Source: Apostichopus japonicus
Lineage: Eukaryota > Echinodermata > Holothuroidea > Aspidochirotida > Stichopodidae
Assembly (NCBI RefSeq): GCF_037975245.1
Contig: NC_092571.1
Span: 22,573,564 to 22,637,563, forward strand
Length of the DNA stretch: 64,000 nt
Direction: 5' to 3'
The notes beneath the pieces were generated by a model that did no database searches, was not told the origin of the DNA, and was given only the letters and a program-made list of their open reading frames with translations. A program made the position numbers and the translations under genes. Positions within the stretch are counted from its first letter, which is position 1; every line of letters begins with the position of its first letter. This document shows, piece after piece, positions 1 through 25,638 of the stretch.

Positions 1-100
1 AATTTATCTATGTAAGGCCTATAAATTGTTGTTTGTCGGGATTCGACAAGGAAGAAAAAATATGGAGAAATAGGAGAACGCTATCCATATTAGACTACTC

Positions 101-183
101 TGGTACGAGTGGATTTCGAACCCACGCGGACATTTGTCCATTGGAACTTAAGTCCAACGCCTTAACCACTCGGCCATCGTACC
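101..183 (-). tRNA. tRNA-Leu(UAA), unit a, T-stem variant
   Basis: This 83-nt gene has a 7-bp acceptor stem (GGTACGA/TCGTACC), discriminator A, anticodon loop CTTAAGT (anticodon TAA) and a long class II variable arm. It differs from the array consensus in the T arm: the 3' stem and loop end read AATCC instead of CCCC, giving one G-U pair and an altered last loop base. It probably still folds. Confidence 0.85.
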
Positions 184-462
184 AGCTACGACATAATACT
201 AGGCTGAAGTTTGCCAAAAAACAGCTAAAAAGATGGGTAAATGTATAATCTTAACTTTTGCTTCAAGGAACAACGTAGAAAAAGTAACTTAGTTATTTTC
301 TTTTTGTGTGAGAAATAATTCCATCACTGCTAGTTTAAGATTAAAATAACTTCGTTGTATTGAACGTATATATGTAGATCCTACAAATTGTTGTTTGTCG
401 GGATTCGACAAGAAAGAAAACGTAACGAGAAAAAGGAGCACGGTGTCCAAATAAGACTACTC

Positions 463-545
463 TGGTACGAGTGGGGTTCGAACCCACGCGGACATTTGTC
501 CATTGGAACTTAAGTCCAACGCCTTAACCACTCGGCCATCGTACC
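463..545 (-). tRNA. tRNA-Leu(UAA), unit b
   Basis: Consensus copy: acceptor, D, anticodon (TAA), variable and T arms all intact, with box A (TGGCCGAGTGG) and box B (GGTTCGAACCC) perfect. Spacing to the next copy is 371 bp. Confidence 0.95.
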
Positions 546-833
546 AGCTACGATATAAAACTTGGCTGAAGTTTGCCAAAAAAAGCCAACAAAAGGTAAA
601 ACAGATGGGTAAATGTATAAACTTAACTTTTGCATCAAGGAACAACGTAGAAAAGAAACTTAGTTAATTTCTTTTTGTGTGAGAAAAAATTCCATCACTG
701 CTAGTTTTTCGATTAAAATGACTTCGTTGTATTGAACTTATCTATGTAGGCCTATGAATTGTTGTATGTCGGTCTTCGACAAGAAAGAAAAAATATGGAG
801 AAAAAGGAGAACGGTGTCCATATAAGTCTACTC

Positions 834-916
834 TGGTACGAGTGGGGTTCGAACCCACGCGGACATTTGTCCATTGGAACTTAAGTCCAACGCCTTAACC
901 ACTCGGCCATCGTACC
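834..916 (-). tRNA. tRNA-Leu(UAA), unit c
   Basis: Consensus copy. The flanking spacer has hairpin loop GTCTT instead of GGATT. Nearly identical in gene and flanks to the copy at 8738. Confidence 0.95.
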
Positions 917-1195
917 AGCTACGCTATAAAACTTGGCTGAAGTTTGCCAATAAAATGTAAAACAGATGGGTAAATGTATAACCTTAACTTTTGCTTCAAG
1001 GAACAACGTAGAAAAAAGAAACTTACTTATTTTCTTTTTTTGTGAGAAATATTTCATCACTGCTAGTTTAAGATTAAAATAACTTCGTTGTATTGAATTT
1101 ATCTATGTAGGGTCTATAAATTGTTGTTTGTCGGGATTCGACAAGAAAGAAAAAATATGGAGAAATAGGAGAACGCTATCCATATTAGACTACTC

Positions 1196-1278
1196 TGGTA
1201 CGAGTGGGGTTCGAACCCACGCGGACATTTGTCCATTGGAACTTAAGTCCAACGCCTTAACCACTCGGCCATCGTACC
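1196..1278 (-). tRNA. tRNA-Leu(UAA), unit d
   Basis: Consensus copy. Its 5' flank (AATTGGATACAATTTGCC on the plus strand) matches the d and f units at 1925, 6179, 6907 and 9100. Confidence 0.95.
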
Positions 1279-1556
1279 AGCTACGATATAATAATTGGAT
1301 ACAATTTGCCAAAGAGCTAAAAAGATGGGAAAATGTAATTTAACATTTTCTTCAACGAACAACGTAGAAAAGGATAACTTAGTTATGTTTTTTTTTTGTG
1401 TGAGAAATATATATTTCACACTGTAAGTTTAAGATTGAAATAACTTCGTTGTATTGAACTTATCGATTTAAATCCTATAAATTGTTGTATGTCGGGATTC
1501 GACAAGGAAGAAAAAGGAAGGAGAAAAAGGAGAACGGTGTCCATAAAAGACTACTC

Positions 1557-1639
1557 TGGTACGAGTGGGGTTCGAACCCACGCGGACATTTGTCCATTGG
1601 AACTTAAGTCCAACGCCTTAACCACTCGGCCATCGTACC
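1557..1639 (-). tRNA. tRNA-Leu(UAA), unit e
   Basis: Consensus copy. A T4 run (AAAA on plus) lies only about 10 nt past the 3' end, a closer Pol III terminator than in most units. Same flanks as 2286, 6539, 7267 and, with slight change, 9461. Confidence 0.95.
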
Positions 1640-1924
1640 AGCTACGATATAATACTTGGCTGAAGTTTGCCAAAACACCAAAACAAGCTAAAACGGATGG
1701 GTAAATGTATAATCCTATCTTTTGCTTCAAGCAACAACGTAGAAAAAGAACTTAGTTATTTTCTTTTTGTATGAGAAATATTTCATCACTGCTAGTTTAA
1801 GATTAAAATAACTTCGTTGTATTTAATTTATCTATGTAAGGCCTATAAATTGTTGTTTGTCGGGATTCGACAAGGAAGAAAAAATAAGGAGAAATAGGAG
1901 AACGCTGTCCATATAAGACTACTC

Positions 1925-2007
1925 TGGTACGAGTGGGGTTCGAACCCACGCGGACATTTGTCCATTGGAACTTAAGTCCAACGCCTTAACCACTCGGCCA
2001 TCGTACC
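1925..2007 (-). tRNA. tRNA-Leu(UAA), unit f
   Basis: Consensus copy. With the next copy it forms the 729-bp f-e pair that recurs at 6179 and 6907. Confidence 0.95.
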
Positions 2008-2285
2008 AGCTACGATATAATAATTGGATACAATTTGCCAAAGAGCTAAAAAGATGGGAAAATGTAATTTAACATTTTCTTCAACGAACAACGTAGAAAA
2101 GGATAACTTAGTTATGTTTTTTTTTTGTGTGAGAAATATATATTTCACACTGTAAGTTTAAGATTGAAATAACTTCGTTGTATTGAACTTATCGATTTAA
2201 ATCCTATAAATTGTTGTATGTCGGGATTCGACAAGGAAGAAAAAGGAAGGAGAAAAAGGAGAACGGTGTCCATAAAAGACTACTC

Positions 2286-2368
2286 TGGTACGAGTGGGGT
2301 TCGAACCCACGCGGACATTTGTCCATTGGAACTTAAGTCCAACGCCTTAACCACTCGGCCATCGTACC
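2286..2368 (-). tRNA. tRNA-Leu(UAA), unit e, beside the LINE
   Basis: Consensus copy. Its upstream spacer (higher coordinates) is interrupted at 2534 by the LINE, about 166 bp from the tRNA 5' end. Confidence 0.95.
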
Positions 2369-2632
2369 AGCTACGATATAATACTTGGCTGAAGTTTGCC
2401 AAAACACCAAAACAAGCTAAAACGGATGGGTAAATGTATAATCCTATCTTTTGCTTCAAGCAACAACGTAGAAAAAGAACTTAGTTATTTTCTTTTTGTA
2501 TGAGAAATATTTCATCACTGCTAGTTTAAGATTAGTTTAGTTTAGTTTAGTAGAAAAAAGGATCAGGAGGGACACTTAAGTCCCCATCAAGGACCCTATA
2601 AAGAGAGGGAAAAAAACTGAAGACACAAACAC

Positions 2633-5581
2633 TCAGACCCGATTACAATGCTTAAAGTGCTTGTCCAAAGCATTCTTAAACCCATTGACACTACTTGCAA
2701 GTACAACTTTCTCAGGCAAACTATTCCACTCATTCACAACCCTATTAGAAAAAAAGTTATGCCGAATATTAATCCTACTATGCGACTTTTGAAGTTTAAG
2801 ACAATGACCTCTAGTACAACTACTGTTTGCAAACATGAAAAAGTCGGTAAAGGATAAATTGTCGAAACCATACACAATCTTGAAAACCTGGATCAAGTCC
2901 CCACGTAACCTCCTAAGCTCCAGTGTGGTGAGATTCAACAGTTGTAACCGCCTATAATAAGGAACCCTCTTTAAGGAACTAATCATCCTAGTAGCCCTCC
3001 TCTGGACCTTTTCAAGTACTTCCTTATCCTTAGCAAAATAAGGGTTCCAAGCCTGCACAGCATACTCCAGATGAGGCCTAACCAACTGCTTATAAAGCCT
3101 AACTACGATGTCCTCTTTCAGAAAACTGAAGTTCCTCTTGATCATACCTAAAACCCTATTACCTCTTTTAGCAGCTTCAAGACAATGTTTGGAAGGTTGC
3201 AGAGACGAGTCAATGTAGATACCTAGGTCTCTTTCAACAGAGACCTCCTGTAACTCCACACCATTTAGATTGTATGTAAACTTTTGGTTACTACTACCAA
3301 TGTGCATTACCTTACATTTATCAATATTAAAAAGCATTTGCCACCCCTGAGACCAGGAAAAAATCTTATCTAAATCCGCTTGAAATTTCTCAGAATCGCT
3401 TTTGGAAGAGACCTCAGAATACAATTTGGTGTCATCAGCAAACTTCTTAGCTGTACACAAAATATCTCCGTCGATGTCATTTATATAGGCAACAAACAAC
3501 AGGGGACCTAATACAGACCCTTGTGGAACCCCACTAGTAACGTTCTGCCAAGAAGAAGCACAGCCATTAATTACCACCCTCTGTTCCCTATTACCAAGCC
3601 AATTCCCGATCCAAGACAGTAAATTCCCTATGACACCCATGCTCTTCAGCCTAAGTAAAAGACGCTGGTGGGGAACTTTATCAAAGGCCTTCTGGAAATC
3701 CAGGAACACAACATCTACAGACATCTGCCTATTTAGTGAGCTTGTTACATCTTCCATAAACTCAAGGATATTAGTGAGACAAGACCTTTTTTGACAAAAG
3801 CCATGCTGAGACTCTCTGATCAAAGACTGACTGCTGAAGTGACAGACCAAAGACTTTTTAACAATAGACTCCATGACCTTACAAACTACACTAGTGAGAC
3901 TAACGGGCCTATAATTACAGGGCTTAGTCTTATCACCCTTCTTGAAAATTGGGGTAATATTAGCACATCTCCAGTCCCTAGGAACATAACCTTCATCCAT
4001 AAATTTACTAAAAATCAACGAGAGTGGAACGCAGAAATAGTGTGCAAGAGTCTTCAACAAATACGGATGGATTGCATCCGGTCCAGAAGCTTTAGAAACA
4101 TTTAGACGAAGCAGCTCCTTTAAGACAACGTCATCCGAAAATAAGACCGTATCCAGTTTAGGCCTATCACTGCCCCCCTGAAAATCTGGAATACTACTCG
4201 TATCTTCCCTTGTGAAAACCGACACAAAATAGTCGTTCAAAAGATCTGCAACATCCTGACTATCAGTAACTATCTTATCAGCCTGTGGTGCCCTAAGGGA
4301 AACAATTGCATCTTTAACTTTCTGCTTAGACCTGACATAAGAAAAGAAGGCCTTTGGGTTATCCTTAATTTTTAGGGCGATGCTTTTTTCGAAATTCAAT
4401 TTTGCATCAGAGACTAAGCATTCTACTTTCAGCTGATGAATTTTAAACTTGGCCAAAAGAGATTCAGATTTAGTCCTCCTAAACAACTTCCACATTCTAC
4501 GTTTTTGCCTAATTGCACATCTAACTTTCTTATTCATCCAGTGAGGCATACTGCTTTTACGACGACGATTCTTCCACGGAACATGATTTTCCATAATGAC
4601 CTTTAATTTATCAGCAAAACAAATCCAAGACTGAGAAGCACTCATATCACTAAACAAATTAATCCAATCTGTACCCTTTAGTAAAGTTTCAATTGCCTCT
4701 GTATCTGATCTCGAAAAATCAGGGACTTTTTCCTTGCTAATAGAACTTACGACCTTACAAACAACATCAAAAGCTAGTATATCATGATCACTAGTTCCTA
4801 GTTTTCCTAGACCGGTCAAATCAACAACATTGCTTGGATTAGAACTCAAAACAAGATCCAGGATGTTATCCCCCCTAGTAGGGAAAGTAACATGTTGATG
4901 TAAAAAGCAATCTTGCACAACATCTAGAAAATTACTACCTTTCCTACTACTAGAACCATCTATCCAATTAATGTCAGGAAAATTAAAGTCGCCCATTATA
5001 ACAACATCACCTTTAGCAGCCTTTCTAATTGAATCAAACAGCACGACATCATTATCATCGCTGCTGTTAGGAGAGCGGTAAACAACACCTACAGTGATAA
5101 CGTCCCTGGACCTCTTGGAGTTGTTTGTGGACAACTCGCACCAGACAGAATTAACAAAAGACCCTTGCAACTGAGATTTCTCAACACTTACAATGTCATC
5201 CCTAACATACAGTAAAACTCCCCCACCAACCCCATTATGAGTATCCCTTCTGTCCTGACGATACACAACATACCCCGGGTGAGAAACCTCAGCACTATCA
5301 ATGTCCTCCCTTAACCAAGACTCGGTGATACCAAACACATCCGGTTTCAGATCCTCGAGAAGCACAGTAAATTCAGCAAAATTTTTACGAATACTTCTAG
5401 CATTGGTAAAGACAATCTTCAGCCTATCCCTGAAACTATGTACCTTAGCATGCCTCCTAAAGTTAGAACTATGACTATCACTTATTTTGCTCTCAAAACG
5501 CCTATAATCGCCTCCACTAGGAACATAATCCTTATCCAAACTAATTCCTGACTTCATCGCCCCCCAATTTAGTTTAAACAT
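2633..5581 (-). CDS. LINE ORF2: AP endonuclease plus reverse transcriptase
   Basis: This uninterrupted 982-aa frame is the replication protein of a non-LTR retrotransposon. Residues about 54-270 form an apurinic endonuclease domain with the expected catalytic points: N60 (FTNARS), E87 (ITESWL), D198 and N200 (GDFN) and the SDH triad element near 264-266. The central reverse transcriptase has the fingers block TPIFKKGD and NYRPVSLTS, then QGSVLGPLLF and the catalytic FADD box near residue 714. The C-terminal part has LEYAVQAWNP and the thumb region typical of CR1/L2/Jockey elements. The ATG overlaps the ORF1 stop by 13 nt (ATGTTTAAACTAA), so ORF2 may be translated by reinitiation. No stop or frameshift is present, so this is a young copy, though the 5' truncation makes it non-autonomous as it stands. 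Confidence 0.93.
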   Translation of the reverse strand: MFKLNWGAMKSGISLDKDYVPSGGDYRRFESKISDSHSSNFRRHAKVHSFRDRLKIVFTNARSIRKNFAEFTVLLEDLKPDVFGITESWLREDIDSAEVSHPGYVVYRQDRRDTHNGVGGGVLLYVRDDIVSVEKSQLQGSFVNSVWCELSTNNSKRSRDVITVGVVYRSPNSSDDNDVVLFDSIRKAAKGDVVIMGDFNFPDINWIDGSSSRKGSNFLDVVQDCFLHQHVTFPTRGDNILDLVLSSNPSNVVDLTGLGKLGTSDHDILAFDVVCKVVSSISKEKVPDFSRSDTEAIETLLKGTDWINLFSDMSASQSWICFADKLKVIMENHVPWKNRRRKSSMPHWMNKKVRCAIRQKRRMWKLFRRTKSESLLAKFKIHQLKVECLVSDAKLNFEKSIALKIKDNPKAFFSYVRSKQKVKDAIVSLRAPQADKIVTDSQDVADLLNDYFVSVFTREDTSSIPDFQGGSDRPKLDTVLFSDDVVLKELLRLNVSKASGPDAIHPYLLKTLAHYFCVPLSLIFSKFMDEGYVPRDWRCANITPIFKKGDKTKPCNYRPVSLTSVVCKVMESIVKKSLVCHFSSQSLIRESQHGFCQKRSCLTNILEFMEDVTSSLNRQMSVDVVFLDFQKAFDKVPHQRLLLRLKSMGVIGNLLSWIGNWLGNREQRVVINGCASSWQNVTSGVPQGSVLGPLLFVAYINDIDGDILCTAKKFADDTKLYSEVSSKSDSEKFQADLDKIFSWSQGWQMLFNIDKCKVMHIGSSNQKFTYNLNGVELQEVSVERDLGIYIDSSLQPSKHCLEAAKRGNRVLGMIKRNFSFLKEDIVVRLYKQLVRPHLEYAVQAWNPYFAKDKEVLEKVQRRATRMISSLKRVPYYRRLQLLNLTTLELRRLRGDLIQVFKIVYGFDNLSFTDFFMFANSSCTRGHCLKLQKSHSRINIRHNFFSNRVVNEWNSLPEKVVLASSVNGFKNALDKHFKHCNRV

Positions 5582-6055
5582 AGCTGTTCAACAGAGTAAT
5601 TCACCATCCTACCAAACAACGAGGCCCCAGTATTAGCTAAGTGCAAACCATCCCTGGCGAACAGATCCCTTCTACCCTGGAAAGATGACCACATGTCAAC
5701 AAATGTGAAGCCGAAGTCGGCACACAAACTATACAATAAACCATTCAAAGTTACAATCTTTTCTGACAGAACCTTGCTGTCAAATCTTGGCAACAAACTG
5801 CATATGACAACTTTAGCCCGAGTTGATGCTAGTCGACACATCAATTCGTGGTACCTAGACTGAATAATGTTTTGCGACTCCTTCTGCACATTGTTAGTGC
5901 CTACCTGGACTACAACCACCTCCTCATCTGACACGATTTTGTTTACCCTGTTACTGACATCCTGGATTTTAGCACCTGGCAAACATACCCTGACCCTTTT
6001 TGCTTTATCCGCCCTGCAGAACTCTCGGTCTACATACCGTACTAATGAATCCCCA
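5569..6055 (-). pseudogene. LINE ORF1, 3' part: SGNH/GDSL esterase domain
   Basis: The open frame runs from the truncated 5' edge of the element to a stop at 5569, about 161 codons. It is recognisable as the SGNH-hydrolase (esterase) domain found in ORF1 of CR1 and L2 elements. The block I serine motif GDS is encoded at 6046-6054, the first complete codons after the break. Block III is QVGTNN and the catalytic Asp/His block is DGLHL near the C-terminus. The first methionine is at 5982, but it lies downstream of GDS and is not the original start. The N-terminal part of ORF1 is missing because of 5' truncation, so the protein is incomplete although all catalytic blocks survive. Confidence 0.88.
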
Positions 6056-6178
6056 ATTAAAATAACTTCGTTGTATTTAATTTATCTATGTAAGGCCTAT
6101 AAATTGTTGTTTGTCGGGATTCGACAAGGAAGAAAAAATAAGGAGAAATAGGAGAACGCTGTCCATATAAGACTACTC

Positions 6179-6261
6179 TGGTACGAGTGGGGTTCGAACC
6201 CACGCGGACATTTGTCCATTGGAACTTAAGTCCAACGCCTTAACCACTCGGCCATCGTACC
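6179..6261 (-). tRNA. tRNA-Leu(UAA), unit f, beside the LINE
   Basis: Consensus copy, the first tRNA after the LINE. Its 3' side spacer begins at the 6056 junction, about 120 bp away. Flanks match 1925 except for one base in a poly-T tract. Confidence 0.95.
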
Positions 6262-6538
6262 AGCTACGATATAATAATTGGATACAATTTGCCAAAGAGC
6301 TAAAAAGATGGGAAAATGTAATTTAACATTTTCTTCAACGAACAACGTAGAAAAGGATAACTTAGTTATGTTTTTTTTTGTGTGAGAAATATATATTTCA
6401 CACTGTAAGTTTAAGATTGAAATAACTTCGTTGTATTGAACTTATCGATTTAAATCCTATAAATTGTTGTATGTCGGGATTCGACAAGGAAGAAAAAGGA
6501 AGGAGAAAAAGGAGAACGGTGTCCATAAAAGACTACTC

Positions 6539-6621
6539 TGGTACGAGTGGGGTTCGAACCCACGCGGACATTTGTCCATTGGAACTTAAGTCCAACGCCT
6601 TAACCACTCGGCCATCGTACC
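6539..6621 (-). tRNA. tRNA-Leu(UAA), unit e
   Basis: Consensus copy with the close T4 run. Part of the first post-LINE f-e pair. Confidence 0.95.
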
Positions 6622-6906
6622 AGCTACGATATAATACTTGGCTGAAGTTTGCCAAAACACCAAAACAAGCTAAAACGGATGGGTAAATGTATAATCCTAT
6701 CTTTTGCTTCAAGCAACAACGTAGAAAAAGAACTTAGTTATTTTCTTTTTGTATGAGAAATATTTCATCACTGCTAGTTTAAGATTAAAATAACTTCGTT
6801 GTATTTAATTTATCTATGTAAGGCCTATAAATTGTTGTTTGTCGGGATTCGACAAGGAAGAAAAAATAAGGAGAAATAGGAGAACGCTGTCCATATAAGA
6901 CTACTC

Positions 6907-6989
6907 TGGTACGAGTGGGGTTCGAACCCACGCGGACATTTGTCCATTGGAACTTAAGTCCAACGCCTTAACCACTCGGCCATCGTACC
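6907..6989 (-). tRNA. tRNA-Leu(UAA), unit f
   Basis: Consensus copy. Its flanks are essentially identical to those at 6179, pointing to very recent duplication. Confidence 0.95.
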
Positions 6990-7266
6990 AGCTACGATAT
7001 AATAATTGGATACAATTTGCCAAAGAGCTAAAAAGATGGGAAAATGTAATTTAACATTTTCTTCAACGAACAACGTAGAAAAGGATAACTTAGTTATGTT
7101 TTTTTTTGTGTGAGAAATATATATTTCACACTGTAAGTTTAAGATTGAAATAACTTCGTTGTATTGAACTTATCGATTTAAATCCTATAAATTGTTGTAT
7201 GTCGGGATTCGACAAGGAAGAAAAAGGAAGGAGAAAAAGGAGAACGGTGTCCATAAAAGACTACTC

Positions 7267-7349
7267 TGGTACGAGTGGGGTTCGAACCCACGCGGACATT
7301 TGTCCATTGGAACTTAAGTCCAACGCCTTAACCACTCGGCCATCGTACC
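7267..7349 (-). tRNA. tRNA-Leu(UAA), unit e
   Basis: Consensus copy, second post-LINE f-e pair. Confidence 0.95.
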
Positions 7350-7634
7350 AGCTACGATATAATACTTGGCTGAAGTTTGCCAAAACACCAAAACAAGCTA
7401 AAACGGATGGGTAAATGTATAATCCTATCTTTTGCTTCAAGCAACAACGTAGAAAAAGAACTTAGTTATTTTCTTTTTGTATGAGAAATATTTCATCACT
7501 GCTAGTTTAAGATTAAAATAACTTCGTTGTATTTAATTTATCTATGTAAGGCCTATAAATTGTTGTTTGTCGGGATTCGACAAGGAAGAAAAAATAAGGA
7601 GAAATAGGAGAACGCTGTCCATATAAGACTACTC

Positions 7635-7717
7635 TGGTACGAGTGGGGTTCGAACCCACGCGGACATTTGTCCATTGGAACTTAAGTCCAACGCCTTAAC
7701 CACTCGGCCATCGTACC
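7635..7717 (-). tRNA. tRNA-Leu(UAA), f/a hybrid unit
   Basis: Consensus copy. The 3' flank is f-type and the 5' flank (CATAATACTTGGCTGAAG on plus) is a-type, marking an unequal crossover point between the f-e expansion and the next a-b-c-d-e block. Confidence 0.95.
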
Positions 7718-7997
7718 AGCTACGACATAATACTTGGCTGAAGTTTGCCAAAAAACAAGCTAAAATGATGGGTAAATGTATAATCTTAACTTTTGCTTCA
7801 AGGAACAACGTAGAAAAAGTAACTTAGTTATTTTCTTTTTGTGTGAGAAATAATTCCATCACTGCTAGTTTAAGATTAAAATAACTTCGTTGTATTGAAC
7901 GTATATATGTAGATCCTACAAATTGTTGTTTGTCGGTCTTCGACAAGAAAGAAAAAGTAACGAGAAAAAGGAGCACGGTGTCCAAATAAGACTACTC

Positions 7998-8080
7998 TGG
8001 TACGAGTGGGGTTCGAACCCACGCGGACATTTGTCCATTGGAACTTAAGTCCAACGCCTTAACCACTCGGCCATCGTACC
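7998..8080 (-). tRNA. tRNA-Leu(UAA), unit b
   Basis: Consensus copy. Gene and 5' flank match the unit at 463. Confidence 0.95.
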
Positions 8081-8368
8081 AGCTACGATATAAAACTTGG
8101 CTGAAGTTTGCCAAAAAAAGCCAACAAAAGGTAAAACAGATGGGTAAATGTATAAACTTAACTTTTGCATCAAGGAACAACGTAGAAAAGAAACTTAGTT
8201 AATTTCTTTTTGTGTGAGAAAAAATTCCATCACTGCTAGTTTTTCGATTAAAATGACTTCGTTGTATTGAACTTATCTATGTAGGCCTATGAATTGTTGT
8301 ATGTCGGTCTTCGACAAGAAAGAAAAAATATGGAGAAAAAGGAGAACGGTGTCCATATAAGTCTACAC

Positions 8369-8451
8369 TGGTACGAGTGGGGTTCGAACCCACGCGGACA
8401 TTTGTCCATTGGAACTTAAGTCCAACGCCTTAACCACTCGGCCATCGTACC
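8369..8451 (-). tRNA. tRNA-Leu(UAA), extra unit x
   Basis: Consensus copy absent from the first block. Its 3' flank is c-type and its 5' flank e-type. One base just outside the gene differs (CTACACTGG instead of CTACTCTGG). Confidence 0.95.
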
Positions 8452-8737
8452 AGCTACGATATAACACTTGGCTGAACTTTGCCAAAACGCCAAAACAAGC
8501 TAAAACAGATGGGTAAATGTATAATCCTATCTTTTGCTTCAAGCAACAACGTAGAAAAAGAAACTTAGTTAATTTCTTTTTGTATGAGAAAAAATTCATC
8601 ACTGCTAGTTTTTCGATTAAAATGACTTCGTTGTATTGAACTTATCTATGTAGGCCTATGAATTGTTGTATGTCGGTCTTCGACAAGAAAGAAAAAATAT
8701 GGAGAAAAAGGAGAACGGTGTCCATATAAGTCTACTC

Positions 8738-8820
8738 TGGTACGAGTGGGGTTCGAACCCACGCGGACATTTGTCCATTGGAACTTAAGTCCAACGCCTT
8801 AACCACTCGGCCATCGTACC
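8738..8820 (-). tRNA. tRNA-Leu(UAA), unit c
   Basis: Consensus copy equivalent to 834. Confidence 0.95.
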
Positions 8821-9099
8821 AGCTACGCTATAAAACTTGGCTGAAGTTTGCCAATAAAATGTAAAACAGATGGGTTAATGTATAACCTTAACTTTTGCTT
8901 CAAGGAACAACGTAGAAAAAAGAAACTTACTTATTTTCTTTTTTTGTGAGAAATATTTCATCACTGCTAGTTTAAGATTAAAATAACTTCGTTGTATTGA
9001 ATTTATCTATGTAGGGTCTATAAATTGTTGTTTGTCGGGATTCGACAAGAAAGAAAAAATATGGAGAAATAGGAGAACGCTATCCATATTAGACTACTC

Positions 9100-9182
9100 T
9101 GGTACGAGTGGGGTTCGAACCCACGCGGACATTTGTCCATTGGAACTTAAGTCCAACGCCTTAACCACTCGGCCATCGTACC
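9100..9182 (-). tRNA. tRNA-Leu(UAA), unit d
   Basis: Consensus copy equivalent to 1196. Confidence 0.95.
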
Positions 9183-9460
9183 AGCTACGATATAATAATT
9201 GGATACAATTTGCCAAAAAGCTAAAAAGATGGGAAAATGTAATTTAACATTTTCTTCAAGGAACAACGTAGAAAAGGATAACTTAGTTATGTTTTTTTTG
9301 TGTGTGAGAAATATATATTTCACACTGTAAGTTTAAGATTAAAATAACTTCGTTGTATTGAACTTATCGATTTAAATCCTATAAATTGTTGTATGTCGGG
9401 ATTCGACAAGGAAGAAAAAGTAACGAGAAAAAGGAGAACGGTGTCCATAAAAGACTACTC

Positions 9461-9543
9461 TGGTACGAGTGGGGTTCGAACCCACGCGGACATTTGTCCA
9501 TTGGAACTTAAGTCCAACGCCTTAACCACTCGGCCATCGTACC
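9461..9543 (-). tRNA. tRNA-Leu(UAA), unit e
   Basis: Consensus copy equivalent to 1557, with GTAACGAG instead of GGAAGGAG in the 3' spacer. Confidence 0.95.
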
Positions 9544-9829
9544 AGCTACGATATAATACTTGGCTGAAGTTTGCCAAAACACCAAAACAAGCTAAAACGG
9601 ATGGGTAAATGTATAATCCTATCTTTTGCTTCAAGCAACAACGTAGAAAAAGAAACTTAGTTATTTTCTTTTTGTATGAGAAATATTTCATCACTGCTAG
9701 TTTAAGATTAAAATAACTTCGTTGTATTTAATTTATCTATGTAAGGCCTATAAATTGTTGTTTGTCGGGATTCGACAAGGAAGAAAAAATAAGGAGAAAT
9801 AGGAGAACGCTGTCCATATAAGACTACTC

Positions 9830-9912
9830 TGGTACGAGTGGGGTTCGAACTAACGCGGACATTTGTCCATTGGAACTTAAGTCCAACGCCTTAACCACTC
9901 GGCCATCGTACC
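9830..9912 (-). pseudogene. tRNA-Leu(UAA) copy with broken T stem
   Basis: Two adjacent bases in the 5' strand of the T stem are changed (plus strand CGAACTAACG instead of CGAACCCACG), leaving two mismatched pairs and damaging box B. The acceptor, anticodon and variable arms are normal. It is likely non-functional or weakly transcribed. Confidence 0.75.
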
Positions 9913-10191
9913 AGCTACGACATAATACTTGGCTAAAGTTTGCCAAAAAACAGCTAAAAAGATGGGTAAATGCATAATCTTAACTTTTGCTTCAAGGAAC
10001 AACGTAGAAAAAGTAGCTTAGTTATTTTCTTTTTGTGTGAGAAATAATTCCATCACTGCTAGTTTAAGATTAAAATAACTTCGTTGTATTGAACGTATAT
10101 ATGTAGATCCTACAAATTGTTGTTTGTCGGTCTTCGACAAGAAAGAAAAAGTAACGAGAAAAAGGAGCACGGTGTCCAAATAAGACTACTC

Positions 10192-10274
10192 TGGTACGAG
10201 TGGGGTTCGAACCCACGCGGACATTTGTCCATTGGAACTTAAGTCCAACGCCTTAACCACTCGGCCATCGTAGC
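10192..10274 (-). pseudogene. tRNA-Leu(UAA) copy with acceptor mismatch
   Basis: The second base of the acceptor stem is changed (plus strand CGTAGC instead of CGTACC), giving a C-C mismatch at pair 2-71. The rest is consensus. The left flank is b-type and the right flank e-like, so the unit is a hybrid. Confidence 0.65.
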
Positions 10275-10561
10275 AGCTACGATATAACACTTGGCTGAAG
10301 TATGCCAAAACGCCAAAACAAGCTAAAACGGATGGGTAAATGTATAATCCTATCTTTTGCTTCAAGCAACAACGTAGAAAAAGAAACTTAGTTATTTTCT
10401 TTTTGTATGAGAAATATTTCCATCACTGCTAGTTTAAGATTAAAATAACTTCGTTGTATTGAATTTATCTATGTAGGGCCTATAAATTGTTGTTTGTCGG
10501 GATTCGACAAGAAAGAAAAAATAAGGAGAAATAGGAGAACGCTGTACATATTAGACTACTC

Positions 10562-10644
10562 TGGTACGAGTGGGGTTCGAACCCACGCGGACATTTGTCC
10601 ATTGGAACTTAAGTCCAACGCCTTAACCACTCGGCAATCGTACC
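10562..10644 (-). tRNA. tRNA-Leu(UAA), last recognisable unit z, position-9 variant
   Basis: Stems are intact; the only change is G to T at the unpaired position 9 between acceptor and D stems. Function is plausible. The spacer beyond it diverges from the array consensus. Confidence 0.8.
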
Positions 10645-10762
10645 AGCTACGATATAATACCTGGCTACAATTTACCAAAAAAACTAAAAAAGATTGGAAA
10701 ATGTACCTAAACCTTTCTCCGAGGAACAATGAAGAAAAGGAAAGTTGTCAAAAACTTTATTC

Positions 10763-22995: not shown

Positions 22996-23304
22996 TATAT
23001 GTATATACAATAACACTTGGAAGGTCAGCATTCAAGAATACCAGAAGGTTAAATAATGGTCATAAATATTTTTAAATATTTTAAAACAAAACTTACGGTC
23101 GCCATTCAAAGGTCTATTCCTGTTAGGCCTACACTAATTTTGTTTTGAGTAAATCTGATGAATTGAGGGAATATTCAGGGACTAATTTTGAAATTTTGAT
23201 TTCATTTTAGTACACTCAAATTTGTAGAAGAAGGACAACTGATGACATTTAAATATATTTCGATCGATAACACCTGTAAGTGCAATTAATGTGCGTCTGC
23301 ACGC

Positions 23305-25638
23305 AGGTTTCGTACCTATTACTTCATGACCTTCATTGGCTACCTGTCAAACTGCGTATTGATTACAAGGTACTCCTGTTAACCTTTAAATGTATTCATG
23401 GTATTGCGCCACACTACTTGGGTGAACTTGTTCAAAGTTATACCCCAACTCGCCGTCTGCGCTCTAGCGCCCAATCATTGCTCTCTATGCAACCTGTGTC
23501 CACTAAATCTTATGGCGAGCGATCTTTCCAGTACTCCTCTATGGCGGGCCATCAGTCTCAAATCATGGGAGATCGACTTATACCGATTTAAATCGACATA
23601 TACCAGTTTCCTTCGACATATACCAGTTTCCTTCGACTTATACCAGTTTCATTCTACATATCATCGATTTAAATCGACATATACCAGTTTCCTTCGACAT
23701 ATCATCGATTTAAATCGACATATACCAGTTTCATTCTACATATCATCGATTTATTTTACTTATCATCGATTTAAATCGATGATAAGTAAAATAAATCGAT
23801 GATATGTCGAAGGAAACTGGTATATGTCGATTTAAATCGATGATATGTAGAATGAAACTGGTATATGTCAATTTAAATCGACATATCATCGATTTATTCT
23901 ACATATCATCGATTTATTTTACTTATCATCGATTTAAATCGATGATAAGTAAAATAAATCGATGATATGTCGAAGGAAACTGGTATATGTCGATTTAAAT
24001 CGATGATATGTAGAATGAAACTGGTAGAAGTCAATTTAAATCGACATATCATCGATTTATTCTACATATCATCGATTTATTTTACTTATCATCGATTTAA
24101 ATCGATGATATGTAAAATAAATCGATGATATGTCCATTTAAATCGACATCTACCAGTTTAAATCGATGATATGTCGAATTAAATCGGTAGAAGCCAATTT
24201 CCGTGGACTTATACCAGTTTCTAGCGTCTCAAATCGACATATACCTATTTAAATCGACATATCATCGATTTAGCTCATTAACATATTCCAAATCCCGATT
24301 TCGGTGATGATTGACATGTGAAGATACGTCACGTGAAGTCACCTGACAAGGCGGGCGAATAATTGAAAATAAACACGAGCACAGTGGAATGCATGATTTG
24401 AGCTTGAATACTGTAACTGTTAAACCCCATGGGTATATACTTAGCTACATTAAAACGTAACCTTACAGTAGGCCTCACTGCAGAACAATATCATCTTTGT
24501 TTATAGTGTAACTGGAGTAGGTAATTGCATCTGTGTACGTACTGTGGGCCTATTCAGTTGCATGTGTATTCCTATACTATAGCGCCACGTGTTCGAGTAG
24601 ACAAGCCCAGTTTGCATTGATATAATTGCACGTCATTGACATATCTGTTATTTCAGCCTTATTGTTACACCGACATCTTTTTGCAAGTAATTGTTCATAA
24701 TTACCATTGACATACTGTATAACCATGATGAACACCCTTTCTAGCTTCGTAATTTTGGAACTATTAAATTACTCGCCCGCCTTGTCAGGTGACTACACGT
24801 GATGTATCTCCACATGTCAATCATCACCGAAATCGGGATTTGGAATATGTTAATGAGCTAAATCGATGATATGTCGATTTAAATAGGTATATGTCAATTT
24901 GAGACGCTAGAAACTGGTATAAGTCCACGGAAATTGACTTCTACCGATTTAATTCGACATATCATCGATTTAAACTGGTAGATGTCGATTTAAAAGGACA
25001 TATCATCGATTTATTTTACATATCATCGATTTAAATCGATGATAAGTAAAATAAATCGATGATATGTAGAATAAATCGATGATATGTCGATTTAAATTGA
25101 CATATACCAGTTTCATTCTACATATCATCGATTTAAATCGACATATACCAGTTTCCTTCGACATATCATCGATTTATTTTACTTATCATCGATTTAAATC
25201 GATGATAAGTAAAATAAATCGATGATATGTAGAATGAAACTGGTATATGTCGATTTAAATCGATGATATGTCGAAGTAAACTGGTATATGTCGATTTAAA
25301 TCGATGATAAGTAAAATAAATCGATGATATGTCGAGGGAAACTGGTATATGTCGATTTAAATCGGTATAAGTCGATCTCCCATGATTTGAGACTGATGGC
25401 CCGCCATACTCCTCAACCCTCCTTTGGAATAAACTCCCACTCAACATAAAGAATGTCGTGTCTGTTAAGATGTTCAAAACTGTTTTGAAGACACACACCT
25501 GTTTTCATTGTCATAATTGTTATGTTTACTCTTATTGTATATTGTGTACATATCTTTCACTTTCTTTTGTACAGCGCGCCAAGACTTTATTGTAAGTTGC
25601 GCTATATAAGAACTGTTTATTATTTTTATTATTAATTA
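23305..25638 (+). mobile_element. L2/CR1-like LINE 3' fragment, split by a fold-back element
   Basis: The left piece (about 23,305-23,539) encodes the RT C-terminal end: LHWLPVKLRIDYKVLLLTFK, GIAPHYLGEL, YTPTRRLRS, YGERSFQYSS. After the insertion the same frame resumes at 25,407 as TLLWNKLPLNI and reaches a stop near 25,510. The 3' UTR ends with CGCTATATAAG and an ATT-rich tail to about 25,638. Joining ...CAGTACTCCTC to AACCC across the insertion restores the frame exactly, showing that the fold-back element landed in an older LINE copy. The 5' part of the LINE is missing. Confidence 0.85.
23540..25406. mobile_element. Fold-back (giant inverted repeat) element, 1.87 kb
   Basis: The outer ends are inverted copies: TATGGCGGGCCATCAGTCTC on the left matches GAGACTGATGGCCCGCCA(TA) on the right. 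The left arm (23,540-24,364) and right arm (24,766-25,406) are inverted repeats enclosing about 400 bp of single-copy sequence. Both arms hold tandem and inverted copies of short blocks (ATCGATTTAAATCGAT, CATATACCAGTTT, ACATATCATCGATTTA), so they fold within themselves as well. The flanking host LINE shows an 8-bp TACTCCTC duplication (23,532-23,539 and 25,407-25,414) if the ends are asymmetric by TA, or a 6-bp CTCCTC duplication if they are symmetric. No coding capacity is seen. The superfamily is not recognised. Confidence 0.9.

What the first reader, a model, noticed from the sequence alone, without database searches (positions are those of the whole stretch)
23540..25406. Unclassified fold-back element built from nested palindromes
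The 1.87-kb insertion has inverted arms of 825 and 641 bp, and each arm is made of tandem and inverted copies of a few short blocks around ATCGATTTAAATCGAT. One internal palindrome (23,740-23,807) has perfect 34-nt half-sites. The host LINE is interrupted cleanly and its frame shows a 6-8 bp duplication, so this is a mobile element and not an assembly fold. The ends (TATGGCGGGCC) are not ones I can assign to a superfamily.
Basis: partly seen in the sequence, partly recalled or inferred. Interest (0 to 1): 0.7.

Follow-up and report, generated by a model that had tools for sequence, protein, structure and literature searches.

The report
Fold-back transposon with IS3EU-type ends
This is a real, recently mobile piece of animal 'jumping DNA' whose two halves are long mirror images built from 20-base blocks; its ends and insertion footprints place it with a little-studied transposon group (IS3EU).

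Summary
The element is 23540-25408 (1,869 bp), with arms of 825 and 641 bp and three perfect 70-bp palindromes. The same genome holds 609 matches to its 16-bp end (control 2). Of 29 copies with both ends resolved, 26 have perfect 6-bp target duplications, 2 have 7 bp, 1 is imperfect: not an assembly fold, and 6 bp, not 8.

About 18.5-kb elements in this genome that hold an rva_4 integrase-type domain have the same kind of ends; two of three sit in clear 6-bp duplications. One decayed rva_4 locus carries an end 87.5% identical to this family's. No intact partner for this family was found.

New evidence: insertions prefer G/C three bases outside the duplication (49/52 half-sites; 16/16 in a held-out set). 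The arm block carries that target (CTACATATCATC); extra internal ends abut it in 5 of 9 loci, 1-5 events. I infer that arms grow partly by self-insertion followed by use of alternative ends.

Verdict: new variant of a known kind.

The parts
23534..23539 (.). target-site duplication CTCCTC, left copy
23540..23596 (+). constant outer end of the left arm (TATGGCGGGCCATCAG.., blocks K and J); first 40 bp 95-100% identical in the first set of copies, 86-100% in the second
23540..24364 (+). left inverted arm, 825 bp
23597..23738 (+). tandem array of 20/21-nt blocks (A, A, I, B, A, B, C), variable between copies
23739..23901 (+). 163-bp higher-order module 1 (DEdabcXG) with 70-bp perfect palindrome 23738-23807
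23902..24064 (+). 163-bp higher-order module 2 with 70-bp perfect palindrome 23901-23970
24258..24364 (+). non-repetitive inner arm domain, 94-100% identical in full-length matches of the first set
24365..24767 (.). core, 403 bp, 89-99% identical in full-length matches of the first set (76-86% in diverged copies L052, L055, L057); longest stop-to-stop frame 63 aa
24768..25408 (-). right inverted arm, 641 bp (inner domain 24768-24873)
25067..25229 (-). single 163-bp module of the right arm; 70-bp perfect palindrome 25161-25230
25352..25408 (-). constant outer end of the right arm (..GGCCCGCCATA)
25409..25414 (.). target-site duplication CTCCTC, right copy
23301..23539 (+). interrupted host frame, upstream piece (LINE by reading; no Pfam match); resumes at 25415
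   Evidence: frame open across the empty site (..GERSFQYSSTLLWNKLPLNIKN..); 0 families

Best explanation
A non-autonomous, cut-and-paste DNA transposon with fold-back anatomy. It is moved in trans by an IS3EU-type (rva_4 / integrase-fold) transposase that acts on the 11-bp ends TATGGCGGGCC / GGCCCGCCATA and makes a 6-bp staggered insertion at sites with G/C three bases outside the duplication. Shown here: ends, 6-bp duplications, target preference, number of ends, arm grammar, nested ends, and TATGG..CCATA ends on rva_4-bearing elements of the same genome. Inferred: that such a transposase moves this family; that arms change length by gain and loss of 20-nt blocks and 163-bp modules; and that part of the growth comes from self-insertion into the target sequence that arm blocks carry (C TA CATATC AT C), followed by remobilisation with one outer and one nested end.
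For: Duplications: of 29 copies with both ends, 26 perfect 6 bp, 2 perfect 7 bp, 1 imperfect. A paper passage gives fungal IS3EU as '6 bp TSDs' ending 'TAYGG..CCRTA' (PMC12730594), another 'TA..TA termini. [quoted passage not shown] rva_4 (PF24764): 143 matches in this genome (150 of 224 candidates scored), 0 of 14 control genomes. The rva_4 element on C6 and C3 begins at TATGGTTGGCC where homology of the two copies starts; 3 inverted end pairs 18.4-18.7 kb apart on C3, C6, C12, each enclosing rva_4 hits, among 17 end matches (control 1), with duplications GCCGTC and ATAGTA, and GACGAC inside a GAC tract. Decayed relative L069: end 87.5% identical over 40 bp, a broken rva_4 piece 2.65 kb inside on the same strand, against 2.8 kb in L070. 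Target preference: G/C at -3/+8 in 49 of 52 half-sites (P 4.6e-17 on local GC), 16 of 16 in 8 held-out copies. Nested ends: TTCTACATATC|TATGG in 4 loci (L021, L027, L035, L036) and the other side, GATGATATG|TATGG, in L030, both with the whole hexamer as a 6-bp duplication predicts; the hexamer is 1.3% of element positions and 392 of 646 arm positions that fit the target pattern.
Against: No intact transposase-bearing partner with this family's own end was found. L069 is one locus; its right end was not found in 7.7 kb; with 609 ends and 143 rva_4 hits about one chance neighbour within 5 kb either side is expected genome-wide (my arithmetic), and only strand and spacing argue against that. The link of rva_4 to IS3EU is mine: the paper seen does not mention rva_4 (0 occurrences), and no transposase tree was made. 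The four CATATC|TATGG junctions are alike and could be one inherited event. Four other loci with extra ends do not fit CATATC: L028 (first set), L058 (GACTTA), L066 (composite join) and L068 (two right ends, both followed by TAGTGGT); L019's extra end is a tandem copy with flank. No nested copy keeps both duplication copies. In one search several diverged copies have poor or no matching duplications.
Confidence: 0.82

Rival explanations
1. It belongs to one of the superfamilies in which fold-back elements are already known (Mutator or P), and only resembles IS3EU at its ends.
For: A paper states that most fold-back elements seem to belong to Mutator, with exceptions such as Galileo (P) (PMC4079207 passages); the anatomy is very alike.
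Against: Mutator-like Tetris has 8-10 bp duplications; here 26 of 29 are exactly 6 bp. Ends match TAYGG..CCRTA and are of the kind seen on rva_4 elements in the same genome.
Confidence: 0.05
2. The palindromic arms are an assembly or sequencing artefact.
For: Long palindromes are hard to assemble; L019 has a tandem copy of a flank plus arm that could be a haplotype join.
Against: Arms differ by a ~163-bp module and point changes. Copies have distinct flanks, duplications and arm lengths of 443-1171 bp. 609 ends against 2 in the control.
Confidence: 0.02
3. Arm length changes come only from unequal exchange, replication slippage or template switching during gap repair; the nested ends are by-products of those and not self-insertions.
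For: Most differences are whole 20-nt blocks or 163-bp modules in tandem; the Galileo paper proposes repeat expansion and exchange for arm growth (PMC3573991 passages). Of 9 loci with extra ends (L019 apart), 4 do not abut CATATC, and the 5 that do may be few events.
Against: Both sides of the junction expected from insertion into CATATC occur, and this hexamer in context fits the independently found target pattern.
Confidence: 0.42
4. It is a member of the sea-urchin TU fold-back family (or its relative in this animal).
For: Recalled: TU elements have outer arms of short tandem repeats, a non-repetitive inner domain and a middle segment, as here.
Against: Recalled: TU has about 15-bp repeats and 8-bp duplications; neither is seen here. 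No TU sequence was available; the search on TU terms listed two papers, neither on TU.
Confidence: 0.08

Closest known systems
IS3EU / GingerRoot superfamily (IS3-like integrase-type DNA transposons)
   Same: TATGG..CCATA ends fit TAYGG..CCRTA; 6-bp duplications; rva_4-bearing elements with such ends in the same genome
   Different: This family has no transposase and has long repetitive palindromic arms. I saw no description of that for IS3EU: one paper of the library holds both 'IS3EU' and 'foldback', in unrelated places (PMC8268682); the wider one search listed 10 of 46 papers
Galileo (fold-back-like P element, Drosophila)
   Same: Long internally repetitive inverted arms; the two arms change length independently; structural dynamism (PMC3573991 passages)
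   Different: P superfamily; tandem repeat ~210 bp and in one subfamily only; here 20-nt blocks and 163-bp palindromic modules, 6-bp duplications
Tetris (fold-back, Drosophila virilis)
   Same: Modular arms with tandem repeats, several arm domains, non-autonomous, partner not found (PMC4079207 passages)
   Different: 8-10 bp duplications, suggested Mutator
TU elements (sea urchin) and Drosophila FB
   Same: Outer repetitive arm domain, inner unique domain, middle segment (recalled, not tested)
   Different: TU repeat unit and duplication length differ (recalled)

Membership tests
IS3EU superfamily | ends TAYGG..CCRTA (TA..TA) | tested here: met
   TATGGCGGGCC..GGCCCGCCATA in the window and the paired copies (a few with 1-2 changes); signature from passages
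IS3EU superfamily | 6-bp target-site duplication | tested here: met
   26 of 29 perfect 6 bp, 2 perfect 7 bp, 1 imperfect; 8 further copies chosen because they match; also 3 pairs at 5 of 6 and 3 with no match
IS3EU superfamily | own IS3-like DDE transposase | tested here: not met
   Longest stop-to-stop frame in the core 63 aa: non-autonomous. A candidate mobiliser class exists in the genome, but a partner with this family's full end was not proven
IS3EU superfamily | transposase groups with IS3EU in a tree | not tested
   No reference IS3EU proteins at hand; rva_4 named by Pfam only
Fold-back elements (structural class) | long inverted arms with internal tandem repeats around a middle segment | tested here: met
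Mutator fold-backs (Tetris, Tm1) | 8-10 bp duplication | tested here: not met
   value for Tetris; Tm1 seen in listings only
P superfamily (Galileo) | 7-8 bp duplication and P-type transposase (recalled) | tested here: not met
   26 of 29 are 6 bp; transposase not testable
Polinton/Maverick | 6-bp duplication with AG..CT-type ends (recalled) | tested here: not met
   duplication length fits but ends are TATGG..CCATA
TU elements of sea urchin | sequence identity to TU; 8-bp duplication (recalled) | tested here: inconclusive
   6 bp here; no TU sequence available

The most novel reading that the evidence does not exclude
Fold-back anatomy arose in a further superfamily (IS3EU), and the arms are self-targeting: arm blocks carry the transposase's preferred landing site, so copies insert into their own arms and are then remobilised with one outer and one nested end. 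This would build long palindromic arms, and even multi-element composites such as L066, by transposition and not only by repeat slippage.
Probability: 0.3. Interest if true: 0.65.

Novelty: new variant of a known kind. Interest (0 to 1): 0.48.

Why it matters
How fold-back transposons get their huge palindromic arms is an old question, and their superfamily is often unknown because they carry no transposase. Here ends, duplications and target preference give a superfamily, a set of modular copies of different arm length, and a concrete test: insertion into the element's own arm block. Arms made of satellite-like modules also bear on how satellite DNA and palindrome-driven rearrangements begin.

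Tried and rejected
Rfam: 126 matches at E up to 1, all below their gathering scores, mostly miRNA hairpin models as any long hairpin would give; rejected as RNA genes. Exact outer 30 bp in genome contigs and outer 20 bp in viral contigs: 0 hits each, collections of prokaryotes and viruses where little was to be expected. Hypothesis that arms within one element are homogenised: the inner 107 bp differs as much within an element (mean 2.0) as between elements (1.5-2.1), so no support. 3-kb copies (L056, L058) as possible autonomous forms: they look like ordinary members holding an inserted LINE-like fragment, by reading the frames; Pfam gave no match for the L056 frame. Right end of the large rva_4 element within 10.8 kb of its left end: not there; found 18.4-18.7 kb away by pattern search. 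L069 right end: not found in 7.7 kb. Cross-check by eye of the listed L069-like ends (about 100 of 171) against rva_4 hits: only L069 close; C16:42940949 lies 11 kb from an rva_4 hit, not followed. Solved structures: none for the rva_4 protein. The pattern TATGGCGGGCCGCGAA (possible other relatives) did not complete.

Rows dropped before counts: from the 29, L016 (no left end), L028 (no right end), L038/L039 (fragments), L041-L044 (segmental duplicates of L040's insertion), and one of two left ends of L019; from the 26 also L027, L025, L033. In one search, L049, L050 and L067 showed no matching duplication, L051, L055 and L057 matched 5 of 6, L058 has a matching outer pair, L062 repeats L040's site, and L063-L065 have one end only. 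The held-out set took 8 copies because their duplications match, so those are selected; their -3/+8 positions are not. On recheck I added the internal ends of the second set, which weaken the self-insertion reading; I lowered its probability from 0.35 to 0.30 and raised its rival from 0.40 to 0.42.

Full report
Observation. The insertion is real and runs 23540-25408. Aligned to its own reverse complement it gives a left arm of 825 bp and a right arm of 641 bp around a ~403-bp core. The arms are made of 20/21-nt blocks in both orientations. Perfect palindromes of 70 bp occur three times; the longest half in 500 base shuffles was 10 against 35 observed. The core has no stop-to-stop frame above 63 aa. 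The host frame is open across the empty site; that it is a LINE is read from the protein, and Pfam gave no match for the 79-aa piece.

Copies. In the window's own genome (671.6 Mb, 35 contigs) a DNA search gave 258 matches (40 of 610 candidates scored), and the 16-bp end, with up to one mismatch, 317 forward plus 292 reverse matches against 0 plus 2 for the reversed control. I fetched 36 stretches first, then 20 more. The 'first set' below is the window, L009-L037 and L040 (31 loci). There the outer 40 bp is 95-100% identical; the inner 107 bp 94-100% over full-length matches; the core 89-99% over full-length matches. The second set includes diverged copies with outer ends of 86-95% and cores of 76-86%. 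Arms range from 443 to 1171 bp where both limits are certain. Short core-less palindromes of 527-988 bp also occur with 6-bp duplications.

Arm grammar. Written in blocks (8 arms could not be parsed), most arms read: constant outer end (K, J), a variable run of A/B/C/I/H blocks, usually one to four copies of a 163-bp palindromic module (DEdabcXG), and a constant inner end (DFdYZWVUT). The window copy has two such modules on the left and one on the right. The two arms of one element mostly differ, and the inner domain shows no within-element homogenisation.

Duplications and target. Of 29 copies with both ends resolved, 26 have perfect 6-bp duplications, 2 perfect 7-bp and 1 is imperfect. This settles 6 against 8. 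At 26 sites G/C stands three bases outside the duplication in 49 of 52 half-sites (P 4.6e-17 against local flank GC 0.39) and at the first/last base of the duplication in 38 of 52. In 8 further copies, not used to find the pattern, it was 16 of 16 and 10 of 16. Of the two large rva_4 elements with clear duplications, one fits on both sides and one on one side.

Superfamily. Passages of PMC10045372 and PMC12730594 give IS3EU as TA..TA, in fungi TAYGG..CCRTA, with 6-bp duplications. The window element fits both. In this genome the integrase-type family rva_4 has 143 matches, none in 14 control genomes. Two copies of an rva_4 element (L070, L071; domain E 1e-72 in L070) share sequence that starts at TATGGTTGGCC. 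Pattern search gave 17 end matches (control 1), among them inverted pairs 18,357, 18,675 and 18,474 bp apart on C3, C6 and C12, each around rva_4 hits, with duplications GCCGTC, ATAGTA and, in a GAC tract, GACGAC. So rva_4 elements here have the same kind of ends and footprint as the fold-back family. That rva_4 is the IS3EU transposase is my inference.

Partner. One locus (L069) starts with an end 87.5% identical to the outer 40 bp, carries short traces of the arm blocks next to it, and has a broken rva_4 piece (E 8.4e-10) 2.65 kb inside on the same strand; in L070 the first rva_4 piece is 2.8 kb inside. Chance neighbours are possible at these copy numbers, and its right end was not found. 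An intact partner is therefore not shown.

Nested ends and a growth model. Six of the 31 first-set loci contain an extra copy of the outer end inside the element, not counting L019, where the extra end is part of a tandem copy that includes 28 bp of flank. In five of the six (L021, L027, L030, L035, L036) it abuts CATATC/GATATG, a hexamer at 1.3% of element positions. Four show TTCTACATATC|TATGG and L030 shows GATGATATG|TATGG: these are the two sides expected of an insertion into CTACATATCATC with a 6-bp duplication. In that context the site fits the target pattern at all four G/C positions, and CATATC makes up 392 of the 646 fitting positions in the terminal 430 nt of 31 sequences (one locus twice). 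Only one copy of the hexamer remains in each, as expected if a copy inserted into an arm and the product later moved using one outer and one nested end. The four alike junctions may be one event. Against the model: L028 does not fit, and in the second set the three loci with extra ends do not abut CATATC: L058 (GACTTA), L068 (two right ends, both followed by TAGTGGT) and L066. L066 is a three-part composite with one outer duplication (AGCACC): two unrelated modules with 59-bp and 83-bp perfect inverted repeats and a core-less member of this family, joined at TGGCGGGCC. This agrees with alternative end use but was not explained further.

Literature. Searches. One paper holds both 'IS3EU' and 'foldback', in unrelated places. 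I saw passages only of PMC10045372, PMC12730594, PMC4079207, PMC3573991 and PMC8268682; others only in listings. TU, FB, P and Polinton features quoted without a call are recalled. Repbase was not available, so this exact family may already be catalogued.

The animal is not named; a metazoan host is inferred from the genes and LINEs of the window.

Noticed in passing
window 4-2534 and 6056-10681: Two arrays of one ~361-369-bp tandem repeat (6.9 and 12.7 copies) stand on both sides of a minus-strand LINE with a GDSL-type ORF1 and an endonuclease-RT ORF2 (2633-6081): a LINE inside, or carrying, a tandem array.
   Followed up: no
L066:3431-5873: Composite of three palindromic modules sharing the TATGGCGGGCC end and one outer 6-bp duplication; two of the modules (starting GCGAATATTT and GCGAATTTC) are unrelated to the window element.
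   Followed up: partly
genome contig C17, mainly 15-26 Mb: By eye, a large share of the 143 rva_4 matches lie on one contig, C17; may mark a special region.
   Followed up: no
L040-L044 (C19 end, C20 start, C4 end): A 988-bp core-less member sits in segmental duplications (98.8-99.9% identical) within about 1 Mb of contig ends, with the same GCTGCC duplication in each; L062 on C4 shows the same site.
   Followed up: partly
L055-L058 (C2 30.8-31.3 Mb): Four copies share one target (CGCGAG, two with 5 of 6 on one side), so the host segment was probably duplicated; two hold an inserted LINE-like fragment (by reading; no Pfam match).
   Followed up: partly
L019 567-1244: 28 bp of flank plus an arm stand twice in tandem at the left end: local duplication or assembly of two haplotypes.
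   Followed up: partly
genome contigs C6, C3, C12 (L070, L071): Unusually large (~18.5 kb) rva_4 transposons with TATGG..CCATA ends; their other content was not examined.
   Followed up: partly
genome contig C5 16.39-16.65 Mb: A run of L069-like ends on one strand spaced about 40-85 kb apart, suggesting a local segmental duplication carrying one member.
   Followed up: no
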